Source: an uncultured Ruminococcus sp. (lineage in GTDB: Bacteria; Bacillota; Clostridia; Oscillospirales; Acutalibacteraceae). From it: a DNA stretch of 34,443 bases. The stretch spans positions 1-34,443 of the forward strand of contig CADBCC010000015.1 of NCBI GenBank assembly GCA_902793125.1, given 5' to 3'. Shown piece by piece: positions 6,538-21,470 of this stretch (position 1 is the first letter of the stretch; each line of letters begins with the position of its first letter). The notes under the pieces are model-generated. The model was not told the DNA's origin and ran no database searches. It worked only from the letters and a program-made list of their open reading frames with translations. A program made the translations under genes and the position numbers.

Positions 6538-6559
6538 ACTTCCGACTTAATATGAGCGG

Positions 6560-6706
6560 GAGAGGATTGCGTTAGTTTTACGCGATAACACCTGCGACGC
6601 TTGTGAGAGCGGTAAAAAAGCAAGCCAGCCCAAACCAGTCGTCCGTTTTGTCCTAAGAACAGTCCGCAGAACTGTTTTCTTAACGGGCTTTCGAATCCAT
6701 CCTCGA
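6560..6706 (+). ncRNA. Putative structured RNA, copy A (paralogue of 19,592-19,734)
   Basis: A non-coding stretch of about 143 nt is closed by GAGGAT (6562-6567) pairing with ATCCTC (6699-6704). Inner helices are GTCCG (6641-6645) with CGGGC (6684-6688), and AACAGT (6658-6663) with ACTGTT (6671-6676). The copy at 19.6 kb has the same order of helices with a compensatory change in the closing stem. Both share the words CGCTTGTGA, CGGTA, CCAGTC and CTGTTTTC, and both are followed by a strong terminator. A TAATAT -10-like box ends 8 nt before the closing helix. The 3' end contains a T-arm-like TTCGAATCCATCCTC identical to the tRNA-Tyr 3' arm. I cannot assign a family by eye; raiA-type RNA is a candidate to test. 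The orientation is inferred from terminator placement. Confidence 0.6.
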
Positions 6707-6709
6707 GGC

Positions 6710-6745
6710 AACAAAAAAGACATCCAAGTGGATGTCTTTTTTGTT
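6710..6745. terminator. Bidirectional terminator between the RNA (+) and tRNA-Tyr (-)
   Basis: A perfect 16-bp stem (6710-6725 with 6730-6745) has a 4-nt loop and A6/T6 tracts on either side. It can therefore terminate the plus-strand RNA and the convergent tRNA transcript. Its last base overlaps the encoded CCA end of tRNA-Tyr. Confidence 0.85.
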
Positions 6746-6829
6746 GGTGGGAGAGGATGGATTCGAACCATCGAAGCGAAACGCAACAGATTTACAGTCT
6801 GCCCCCTTTGGCCACTCGGGAACTCTCCC
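6745..6829 (-). tRNA. tRNA-Tyr (anticodon GTA)
   Basis: On the minus strand the acceptor GGGAGAG (from 6829) pairs with CTCTCCC. Discriminator A and CCA are encoded. The anticodon stem-loop CAGACTGTAAATCTG presents GTA. The long variable arm gives 85 nt, as expected for bacterial class II tRNA-Tyr, and the T-arm is GGTTCGAATCC. It is transcribed after tRNA-Thr. Confidence 0.95.
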
Positions 6830-19577: not shown

Positions 19578-19591
19578 GTATAAACCGGTTG

Positions 19592-19734
19592 CGGAGGAAT
19601 ACGTTCATAAAAGCGAGAACCTATACCTCGCTTGTGAAGTCGGTACATAGCTAAACGACGGGCTAAATCCAGTCCGCTGAAAACAGTCACACCGGACTGT
19701 TTTCCGAGACGCGGACCTTCAAGTCCTTCCTCAT
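19592..19734 (+). ncRNA. Putative structured RNA, copy B (paralogue of 6,560-6,706)
   Basis: A 139-nt element is closed by GAGGAA (19594-19599) with TTCCTC (19727-19732). Inner helices are AGCGAG with CTCGCT (19612-19617/19627-19632), GTCCGC with GCGGAC (19672-19677/19711-19716) and AAACAGTC with GACTGTTT (19681-19688/19695-19702). The closing helix differs from copy A by a compensatory A-T/T-A exchange. It shares the words CGCTTGTGA, CGGTA, CCAGTC and CTGTTTTC with copy A. TATAAA ends 9 nt upstream of the closing helix, as TAATAT does in copy A. A perfect terminator follows, and prophage DNA begins directly afterwards. The family is unassigned. Confidence 0.6.
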
Positions 19735-19740
19735 ATCATA

Positions 19741-19779
19741 TTAAAAGACCGATACCCATACGGGTATCGGTCTTTTAAA
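19741..19779 (+). terminator. Perfect 17-bp terminator hairpin after RNA copy B
   Basis: Positions 19741-19757 pair with 19762-19778 around a 4-nt loop. The stem has an AAAA/TTTT base and is largely symmetric. It could also stop integrase transcription coming from the other side. Confidence 0.8.
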
Positions 19780-19781
19780 CT

Positions 19782-19913
19782 GGTTGCGGTGTATGGACTA
19801 TCGCCTTTTTATCGCCTTTTTCAGCCTTTTTGTTAGTTACGTGTTAGTTACAAATTTTATGTGTACTTATTATGCGCCTTTTCGCCTTTGGTGTTCAATG
19901 TAGCTTTTGAACA
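19782..19913. other. Putative left attachment region with integrase arm-type sites
   Basis: There is no gene between the RNA terminator and the integrase stop. GCCTTTT repeats start at 19803, 19814, 19824 and 19876, with GCCTTTG at 19884. GTTAGTTAC occurs twice, 11 bp apart (19832-19840 and 19843-19851). Short phased repeats beside the 3' end of a tyrosine integrase gene are typical arm-type binding sites. GGTTGCGG occurs at 19587-19594 and 19782-19789, flanking RNA copy B. The core att repeat cannot be shown without the right end. Confidence 0.5.
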
Positions 19914-20960
19914 CTACGGAATAATATTTATAGTGTCAATCAGCTTTTGATTTTCAATGTGAGTATAAACACGCTCCGTCAGGTTCATAACTGATTTGTG
20001 ACCGACTATATGTTTTACTATCGTCATATCTGCGCCGTTTTGTATAAGCTGAGTAATGCAGGTGTGTCGTGTTTCGTGTATGGTATGATTAAGACCGAGT
20101 TTTTCGAGAAGCGGCGTCCAATACTTTTTATGAAAATTGGTGTAAGTAAAATGCGCTCCGTTTACCGTCGTGAAAGCATACTCGCATTTGGATTTAGAAA
20201 TAAATTCTTTCCAAAACGGGAGGACTTTGTCGGCTATCGGTACAATACGAATTCCGCTGTCGGTTTTCGATTTACGTACATAGAAAATCTGTTGATCAAG
20301 TCTGACGTCCTCAATTTTAAGGTCTAAAAGCTCGTTAATGCGTAGTCCTGAGTAAATCAACATTAAGATAGATTTTACATAATCATTCTGTCCGACGTTA
20401 TCCCACAGGAATTTTATTTCGTCGGAGCTGAAAGGCGTTTTTTCGTCCCGATTTGATTTTATCTTAATTTCGAGGTTTTCGGCAAAGTTGGTACGCAAAT
20501 AATCTTTTTGAATACAGAATTTATATATTTGGTTTAGTAGCTTTTTTGTGCGAGTTACTTTGTCGTAAGTGGGATTAGGTATGTTGTCTAAAAGCTGTTG
20601 AAGAATAGGCGGACGAAGATCAATCATCTTTTTATTATAAATAGGTTCACAGCGTTTATAAGCGGATTTATAGTTATTTGCTTTCGAGCGACTACCTGTG
20701 CTGTAGGCTTCTTTGCTCCATAATTCATATACCTGTGCAAATGTAGCCTGTGACATTGTTAAGTCGTAAGGACTGCTGTTGTACTCAGCTAACGCTTGTA
20801 AAGCTTTGTTACGGTCAGGAAAATAACCGATAGTAGACATAATCTGCTTTTTGCGTCCGTTCTTGTCCGTTTCCCACCCTGTCGTTTTACGTGCGACAAA
20901 AGGGTTGCGGCGGTTGCCTGACAGTTTATAAACTGTCCCGTAGCCGTTAGGTAATTTCAT
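19914..20960 (-). CDS. int: Prophage tyrosine recombinase (integrase)
   Basis: This 348-aa recombinase integrates and excises the prophage. The N-terminal AP2-like DNA-binding segment (GYGTVYKLSGNRRNPFVARK) is followed by a SAM-like core-binding domain (about 65-165). The catalytic domain has R207 (YSGLRINELLDL), H295-x-x-R298 (HETRHT) and the nucleophile Y332 (ERVYTH). AGGAG precedes ATG 20960. The 3' end faces the RNA/terminator, as expected for an integrase adjacent to its att site. Confidence 0.95.
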   Translation of the reverse strand: MKLPNGYGTVYKLSGNRRNPFVARKTTGWETDKNGRKKQIMSTIGYFPDRNKALQALAEYNSSPYDLTMSQATFAQVYELWSKEAYSTGSRSKANNYKSAYKRCEPIYNKKMIDLRPPILQQLLDNIPNPTYDKVTRTKKLLNQIYKFCIQKDYLRTNFAENLEIKIKSNRDEKTPFSSDEIKFLWDNVGQNDYVKSILMLIYSGLRINELLDLKIEDVRLDQQIFYVRKSKTDSGIRIVPIADKVLPFWKEFISKSKCEYAFTTVNGAHFTYTNFHKKYWTPLLEKLGLNHTIHETRHTCITQLIQNGADMTIVKHIVGHKSVMNLTERVYTHIENQKLIDTINIIP

Positions 20961-21120: not shown

Positions 21121-21162
21121 TTTAAAACTACATCTACAGAATATCTACAAAAACAAGCGAGC

Positions 21163-21470
21163 GGTTGTTTTTGGTTGTTTTTGGTTGTTTTCGCTTGTTT
21201 TCGGTTGTCGTGGGTTGTTTCGGTTGTTTTGGTTGTTTTTATTTATGCTAAAAACGGTCAAAACAGCCGATTTTTTACGTTTTAGGTTGTTTTTATTTTA
21301 TCAGCTCCTTTCGGTAGGTTGTTTTTATGTTTTTGTAGCGTCCACCCTTAAAAAAGTCAATTATAATACAACTTTGAGGGGAGTTTTTAAAAAACAACCG
21401 AACGGTTGATTTTGCTTGTTTTCGCTTGTTTTCGGTTGAAAAAACAACCGAAAACAACCCAAAACAACCT
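21163..21470. repeat. GGTTGTTTT iteron-like array
   Basis: Forward units of GGTTGTTT(T), some variant, start at 21163, 21173, 21183, 21193, 21203, 21213, 21222 and 21231, almost exactly 10 bp apart. Isolated units follow near 21284 and 21317. A second cluster near 21403-21437 is again about 10 bp spaced. Inverted AAAACAACC units occur near 21391 and 21441-21470. The spacing is one DNA turn, which places all sites on one face. There are no convincing ORFs in 21121-21665; the frames that exist are translations of the repeats. It is likely a protein-binding array such as an iteron origin, a partition site or multi-operator. Confidence 0.8.

What the first reader, a model, noticed from the sequence alone, without database searches (positions are those of the whole stretch)
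6560..6706. Unassigned structured RNA, duplicated in the window (copy A)
Two non-coding elements of 143 and 139 nt, 13 kb apart, can be folded by hand into the same plan. The closing helix is GAGGAT/ATCCTC in A and GAGGAA/TTCCTC in B, a compensatory change. The inner helices GTCCG/CGGGC against GTCCGC/GCGGAC, and AACAGT/ACTGTT against AAACAGTC/GACTGTTT, hold the same positions. Both have a -10-like box 8-9 nt before the first helix and a strong terminator right after the last. Shared loop words (CGCTTGTGA, CGGTA, CCAGTC) point to a conserved tertiary fold. I cannot name the family by eye.
Basis: partly seen in the sequence, partly recalled or inferred. Interest (0 to 1): 0.75.

Follow-up and report, generated by a model that had tools for sequence, protein, structure and literature searches.

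The report
Tiny elements mimicking tRNA gene ends
The two "RNA" copies belong to a very common family of short repeated elements that sit just after tRNA genes in gut Clostridia and carry matching copies of the end of the neighbouring tRNA, which suggests a small mobile element that finds its target by sequence matching.

Summary
A and B are homologous and belong to a family with 42 distinct model matches in the own-genome stretches searched and matches in 55 of 60 genomes of the genus. The core hairpin covaries strongly; no Rfam family matches. Across 58 units a direct repeat of the tRNA end starts mostly at position 9 or 5 from the T loop; an inverted copy of the tRNA spans that point and shifts with it. 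A second class targets the rpsI end. Most likely these are non-autonomous, site-specific inserting mini-elements that rebuild the tRNA end; the enzyme is unknown. The own genome has no match to the IS110 (PF02371), Y1, reverse-transcriptase or DUF559 models. Guidance of insertion by base pairing is the novel reading.

The parts
6558..6567 (-).
   Evidence: exact substring of the tRNA-Tyr 3' end
6568..6689 (-). Copy A body (divergent member of type 1)
6648..6690 (-). Copy A core hairpin module with closing stem
   Evidence: covariance model R1, 41.0 bits, E 4.3e-10, (model built on this strand)
6690..6704 (+). Copy A inverted arm: TTCGAATCCATCCTC, same letters as T loop to acceptor of tRNA-Tyr
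   Evidence: exact substring of tRNA-Tyr
6710..6745 (.). Hairpin terminator between copy A and the convergent tRNA
   Evidence: inverted repeat with A and T runs
6745..6829 (-). tRNA-Tyr (gta), target of copy A
   Evidence: ARAGORN; Rfam
19587..19599 (-). Copy B, distal direct repeat: GGTTGCGGAGGAA = reverse complement of a tRNA-Met 3' end
   Evidence: exact in the tRNA-Met of L169
19600..19717 (-). Copy B body
19678..19704 (-). Copy B core hairpin (one inserted base near the loop)
   Evidence: R1 23.8 bits on -, 14.8 bits on +
19718..19732 (+). Copy B inverted arm: TTCAAGTCCTTCCTC, T loop to acceptor of tRNA-Met
19743..19776 (.). Hairpin terminator after copy B
19781..19789 (-). Remnant of the tRNA-Met 3' end (TGGTTGCGG) at the prophage border
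   Evidence: interpretation inferred
19914..20960 (-). Prophage tyrosine integrase beside copy B (the prophage probably separates B from its tRNA; not claimed to move the element)
   Evidence: PF00589 E 8.6e-24; phrog_1 E 7.4e-52

Best explanation
A and B are two members of a family of short non-autonomous inserting elements (unit about 190 bp, body about 115 bp) that occupy the 3' ends of tRNA genes and, in a second class, of rpsI. Shown: typical units sit directly downstream of a tRNA; read along the tRNA they have a terminator, an inverted copy of the tRNA from the T loop onward, a covarying hairpin, a body of nearly constant length, and then a direct repeat of the tRNA 3' end running to CCA. 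Units also stand in tandem. Inferred: insertion happens at the start of the direct repeat, the element supplies a new tRNA 3' end plus terminator so that the tRNA stays functional, and the inverted arm, which spans that point from about -9 to +5, helps to recognise the target. An integrase acting in trans does the cutting; which one is unknown.
For: Position: of 115 exact-hairpin copies with at least 170 nt held downstream, 55 have a convergent tRNA within 100 nt and 0 a same-strand one; within 500 nt 70 against 2. In the own genome 14 of 38 tRNAs (2 of the 38 cut by contig ends) have an exact inverted arm within 120 nt. Arms: 75 of 147 tRNA flanks carry the inverted arm (10 nt or more) against 40 of 712 for tails of other tRNA kinds; a direct repeat of 9 nt or more is present in 65 of 75 with the arm against 9 of 72 without. 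Geometry: among 58 units with a repeat its start is 9 in 19, 5 in 14, 7 in 8, 10 in 5, other in 12. Units whose repeat starts at 4-6 match the tRNA also at -3 to -1 (100, 94, 88%) where those starting at 7 or later do not (42, 14, 17%), so the inverted arm shifts with the repeat; positions 10-14 match at 53-82% against 25-34% for other tRNAs. Size: body 111-118 nt in 29 of 36 units with repeat start 7 or later. Mobility: 0 to 47 model matches per genome within one genus. At tRNA-Tyr 5 of 28 readable loci hold the unit, 4 a different repeat unit, and in 19 I saw none in 300 nt (by eye). Own end and terminator: proximal and distal terminators are unrelated in 43 of 59 units; they are alike in 16, of which 10 show a further arm beyond, i.e. 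an array. Second target: the rpsI end.
Against: No recombinase was found that tracks the elements: IS110 (PF02371), Y1, reverse-transcriptase and DUF559 models have no match in the genome with the most model matches. No clean pair of empty and filled sites with the same flank was shown. Some of the spread could be tandem duplication and gene conversion. The inverted arm is unusual for a simple integrating element. In the rpsI class the body lies the other way round relative to its target. 32 of 128 exact-hairpin copies have neither kind of arm, so the hairpin also lives in other contexts. Selection effects: many flanks were fetched because they hold the hairpin, so 75 of 147 is no genome-wide rate; units were required to match the T loop, so 100% at positions 0-9 is by construction, and grouping by repeat start makes each group's edge look sharper. 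In 20 tandem pairs the second arm differs from the tRNA at 33 of 280 nt, but pairs needed 5 or fewer mismatches of 14, and the distal direct repeats differ at 60 of 277.
Confidence: 0.58

Rival explanations
1. A free-standing structured small RNA with its own promoter and terminator, as the first reader proposed (on the reader's + strand).
For: Conserved words, covarying hairpin; B folds better than all 200 shuffles on that strand (z -4.37) and less so on the other (z -2.11).
Against: Sequences beyond the distal repeat differ between loci (listed). The arms are tRNA copies. Wobble cells favour the other strand 16 to 2, mostly in the closing stem. A does not fold better than shuffles.
Confidence: 0.12
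2. A Cas1-like (casposase or CRISPR-adaptation-like) integrase adds units next to the tRNA as leader, duplicating 14-18 nt each time.
For: Passages read in PMC6614799: the A. boonei casposase uses the 3' end of a tRNA-Pro gene, needs a motif TCAAATC (T-loop-like) upstream, and makes a 14-15 bp duplication. Here the repeat most often runs from position 9 or 5 to CCA, i.e. 14 or 18 nt, and units stand in tandem beside the tRNA.
Against: No terminal inverted repeats noticed. In the casposase case the motif lies 8 bp before the duplication; here the repeat starts about 2 nt after the T loop or inside it. Cas1 was not searched for. It does not explain the inverted arm.
Confidence: 0.1
3. Integron-like: the [tRNA end - hairpin - inverted arm] structure acts as a folded single-strand recombination site for a tyrosine recombinase, like attC.
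For: An overlap of about 5 nt plus a 9-nt arm resembles a core site with overlap (my reading). Unit junctions are extended hairpins, in one case with a short non-terminator stem (L203, by eye). The core hairpin has a three-base loop.
Against: attC core boxes (recalled) are not evident by eye; no integron integrase was searched for; the direct repeat is longer than an attC core.
Confidence: 0.15
4. Fold-back DNA synthesis at the terminator hairpin plus tandem duplication made the inverted arm and repeats; the units are passive and only gene conversion shares bodies between tRNAs.
For: Some arms look like near full-length reverse complements of the tRNA end with A-rich bulges (by eye). Proximal and distal terminators are alike in 16 of 59 units.
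Against: The ungapped arm match falls to background by about position 15, though indels could hide a longer match. Body length is nearly fixed. Numbers differ widely among species.
Confidence: 0.08

Closest known systems
IS110 bridge RNA (PMC11208160, passages read)
   Same: Two stretches of the element match opposite strands of the two halves of the target and overlap at the crossover
   Different: No PF02371 match in the own genome (PF01548 not searched); the matching stretches are at the element's ends rather than shown to be internal loops; the body lies reversed at rpsI; no transcript known
Casposons / Cas1 integrases (PMC6614799, passages read)
   Same: 3' end of tRNA genes as target, 14-15 bp duplication, T-loop-like upstream motif
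   Different: Those elements encode Cas1 and have terminal inverted repeats; these are about 190 bp with a structured body and no gene
Integrative elements, IMEs and CIMEs at tRNA and rpsI ends (recalled; titles seen in the listing)
   Same: Same target genes; element rebuilds the gene end; direct repeats flank it
   Different: Those are kilobases long with genes; here a fixed-size non-coding body plus an inverted copy of the target
REP/MITE palindromic repeats (recalled)
   Same: Many short non-coding palindromic copies per genome
   Different: Strong association with tRNA ends, locus-specific arms, no Y1 transposase model match in the own genome
attC sites of integrons (recalled)
   Same: Extended hairpins at unit junctions, tandem units
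   Different: No integron integrase or attC motif shown; units sit at tRNA ends

Membership tests
Any Rfam 15 RNA family | Score at or above the gathering cut-off | tested here: not met
   Window: only two tRNAs; 8 loci with further units: only tRNAs; permissive scans of A, B and one type-2 unit gave no credible hit
IS110 / bridge RNA elements | IS110 recombinase in the genome | tested here: not met
   PF02371: 0 matches in the own genome, one genome searched; PF01548 not searched
IS110 / bridge RNA elements | RNA arms matching both target halves and overlapping at the core | tested here: inconclusive
   Two target-matching arms that overlap by about 5 nt, but RNA not shown and the body is reversed at rpsI
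IS200/IS605 or REP (Y1 transposase) | Y1_Tnp in genomes with many copies | tested here: not met
   31 of 60 genus genomes have Y1; own genome, G008, G015, G018 and G077, which have 47, 24, 27, 15 and 16 model matches, have none
Retroelement / SINE-like | Reverse transcriptase in genomes with many copies | tested here: not met
   20 of 60 have RVT_1 (G015, G033 and G070 among them); the own genome with 47 model matches has none
Casposon | cas1 and terminal inverted repeats | not tested
   Cas1 search not run; no terminal inverted repeats noticed by eye
Integron cassette | attC site and integron integrase | not tested
   -
Site-specific integrating element at tRNA ends | Direct repeat of the tRNA 3' end flanking the insert | tested here: met
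   65 of 75 flanks with the arm, 9 of 72 without
Site-specific integrating element at tRNA ends | Occupied and unoccupied orthologous sites | tested here: inconclusive
   tRNA-Tyr: unit in 5, other repeat unit in 4, none seen in 19 of 28 readable loci, by eye; flanks too diverged for exact junctions
Structured nucleic acid | Covariation above shuffles and slid controls | tested here: met

The most novel reading that the evidence does not exclude
A protein-less mobile element that is guided by nucleic-acid pairing: its arms encode both halves of the target around the insertion point (about -9 to +5 on one arm, 0 onward on the other), so that changing the arms retargets it to another tRNA or to rpsI. 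This would be an RNA- or single-strand-DNA-guided insertion system served by an unknown enzyme acting in trans.
Probability: 0.22. Interest if true: 0.92.

Novelty: new variant of a known kind. Interest (0 to 1): 0.7.

Why it matters
These elements flank many tRNA genes of a common gut genus, in tens of copies in some species, and no Rfam model or paper that I found describes them. The arm geometry makes a concrete, testable prediction about how a very small element finds its site. If pairing guides insertion, this would be a new compact targeting system with defined natural target sites.

Tried and rejected
Tried and rejected: (a) known RNA family: Rfam searches. (b) IS110 bridge RNA with resident recombinase: no PF02371 match in the own genome. 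(c) Y1 transposase: absent from the copy-rich own genome. (d) Reverse transcriptase or tRNA-primed insertion: absent there too. (e) DUF559 nuclease, suggested by a neighbour in Bifidobacterium: in 28 of 60 genus genomes but not the own; 24 loci around Y1, RT and DUF559 genes gave one weak model match. (f) A donor guide inside the body (same-sense copies of the 5' words): seen by eye in a few units, not consistent; dropped without a statistic. (g) Ordinary cassettes with genes: unit size is nearly constant; one case at rpsI has two genes between repeated ends, left open. (h) RNAalifold on the whole-unit alignment A1 found only the core hairpin and its closing stem.

Not in print, as far as searched: (open-licence library only). 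From papers I saw: passages in PMC8040213 and PMC2864571, PMC10589994, PMC11208160, PMC6614799; all others only as search listings.

So variants are missing from the counts. The T-loop rule is lenient. Rows dropped: 6 of 134 copies with under 25 nt downstream, 19 of 134 with under 170 nt; searches use 68 and 52 units. One search listed 59 terminator pairs; one search recounts them. Model R1 was built on the tRNA-sense strand, so its strand scores lean that way. One search allowed at most two stem mismatches and left out the two outermost closing-stem positions.

Full report
What was checked. Copies A (6560-6706) and B (19591-19732) are present as described. They align with 100 identical columns of 158, score 112 against 42.8 +/- 8.3 for 300 dinucleotide shuffles, none as high. 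Rfam recognises only the two tRNAs of the window; permissive scans of both copies gave no credible family.

Many copies, not two. A DNA search of the own genome with copy A found further places on ten other contigs, several in tandem pairs about 140-200 nt apart. Viral contigs gave one. A covariance model of the hairpin (R1) matches 55 of 60 genomes of the genus at E<=0.01, with 47 matches in the own genome (probably including opposite-strand echoes of the palindrome) and none in five genomes. Merging echoes gives 42 distinct places, weak ones included, in the own-genome sources searched. At class level 21 of 291 genomes have a match at E<=1e-8.

Next to tRNAs. Of 115 exact-hairpin copies with at least 170 nt held downstream, 55 have a convergent tRNA within 100 nt and none a same-strand tRNA; within 500 nt it is 70 against 2. 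In the own genome 14 of 38 tRNAs (2 of the 38 cut by contig ends) have an exact inverted arm within 120 nt, and a few more have imperfect or displaced ones by eye.

The arms are copies of the tRNA end. Copy A ends in TTCGAATCCATCCTC, the T loop to acceptor of tRNA-Tyr, and begins with GGGAGAGGAT, the reverse complement of the same tRNA's end; copy B does the same for a tRNA-Met. B has no tRNA beside it: a prophage with a tyrosine integrase starts soon after B's terminator, where a remnant TGGTTGCGG of the tRNA end remains. A tRNA-Met with exactly B's arms lies on contig C2, next to sequence with the same GTTAGTTA-type repeats as the prophage border; that both are ends of one prophage is my inference.

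Geometry. In 147 tRNA flanks 75 have the inverted arm (control with tails of other tRNA kinds 40 of 712), and a direct repeat of the tRNA 3' end of 9 nt or more lies downstream in 65 of these 75 against 9 of the other 72 (a mixed sample, many fetched because they hold the hairpin). Among 58 of 68 units with a repeat, its start counted from the T loop is 9 in 19, 5 in 14, 7 in 8, 10 in 5 and other in 12. Units starting at 7 or later (36, mostly body type 1) match the tRNA in the inverted arm from 0 to about 14; units starting at 4-6 (16, type 2) match from -3 to about 12. The -3 to -1 match (100, 94, 88% against 42, 14, 17%) shows that the arm shifts with the repeat. The 100% at positions 0-9 is by construction, and grouping by start sharpens the edge of the repeat. 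My reading is an arm spanning the insertion point by about 9 nt before and 5 nt after. With tRNAs of another amino acid the match outside the universal T loop and CCA falls to background. The body is 111-118 nt in 29 of the 36 and 103-132 nt in the 16.

Insertions and arrays. The terminator next to the tRNA and the sequence beyond the direct repeat are unrelated in 43 of 59 units and alike in 16. Of the 16 alike, 10 show a further arm within 110 nt; of the 43, 7 do. So a unit seems to bring its own tRNA end and terminator, and some arrays grow by duplication while others are of mixed origin. In 20 tandem pairs the second unit's inverted arm differs from the tRNA at 33 of 280 nt and its direct repeat at 60 of 277, while bodies differ at 964 of 2651 columns. 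Pairs were admitted only with 5 or fewer arm mismatches of 14, so the first figure is flattered; still, in 13 of 20 the second arm has at most one mismatch, among them pairs with bodies that align no better than unrelated sequence (for example L039, L050, L110, L174). At the tRNA-Tyr site of related species I saw the unit in 5, a different longer repeat unit in 4 and none in 19 of 28 readable loci, by eye over 300 nt.

A second target. In L018 the gene before the element is rpsI (Ribosomal_S9, E 6.5e-52). The element carries a copy of the rpsI 3' end and a short inverted arm, in the same order (gene end, terminator, inverted arm, body, direct repeat), but the body lies the other way round than at tRNAs. 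Of 128 exact-hairpin copies 91 have a T-loop arm by a lenient rule (3 of them fit the rpsI rule too), 5 more an rpsI arm, and 32 neither; two of the 32 look rpsI-like by eye.

Which strand. The core hairpin covaries (64 double changes against 17.8 shuffled). A frequent TC/TC mismatch there is GA/GA on the other strand. Nothing here shows transcription.

Mechanism. Best supported: a non-autonomous element that inserts at the 3' end of tRNA or rpsI genes and rebuilds the gene end. The inverted arm is most simply a target-recognition stretch, but copying from the target during insertion cannot be excluded. Resident IS110 (PF02371), Y1, reverse transcriptase and DUF559 are made unlikely by their absence from the copy-rich own genome; Cas1 and integron integrases were not searched. 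Casposases are the closest known enzyme by target (passages of PMC6614799), bridge RNAs the closest by guide logic (passages of PMC11208160).

Verdict. A real, widespread family, not described in Rfam or in the papers found.

Noticed in passing
L018:6140-8180: Between two repeated rpsI ends lie two genes (one without a Pfam match, one with a sub-threshold zinc-ribbon hit), so some units may carry cargo.
   Followed up: partly
L209, L210, L212, L213 downstream of tRNA-Tyr: A different, longer tandem unit (roughly 200-250 nt by eye) with GGTACC/GGTCGAC-type hairpins and little or no T-loop arm sits at the same tRNA in four genomes.
   Followed up: no
L012:2800-3400 and L174 second unit: A third body type (words AGTCGTCTCACTCGTCC) repeated in tandem; copy A shares a stretch of it.
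   Followed up: no
L038:1215: The hairpin with its closing stem lies inside what reads like an IS630-type transposase gene (named by eye) in a contig labelled Rhodobacterales.
   Followed up: no
L014:6396-8497 and L013:5570-7137: Arrays whose arms match tRNA-Trp and tRNA-Pro(tgg) lie about 18-28 kb from those tRNAs on the same contigs, as if larger elements had inserted between, as for copy B.
   Followed up: no
L100:3863-4225: In Bifidobacterium the hairpin lies near a DUF559-like gene (named by eye) and among GC-rich palindromes; the target there is unknown.
   Followed up: partly
window 21149-21249 and 21390-21442: Runs of about 10-nt repeats (TGGTTGTTTT type) beside the prophage integrase.
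   Followed up: no
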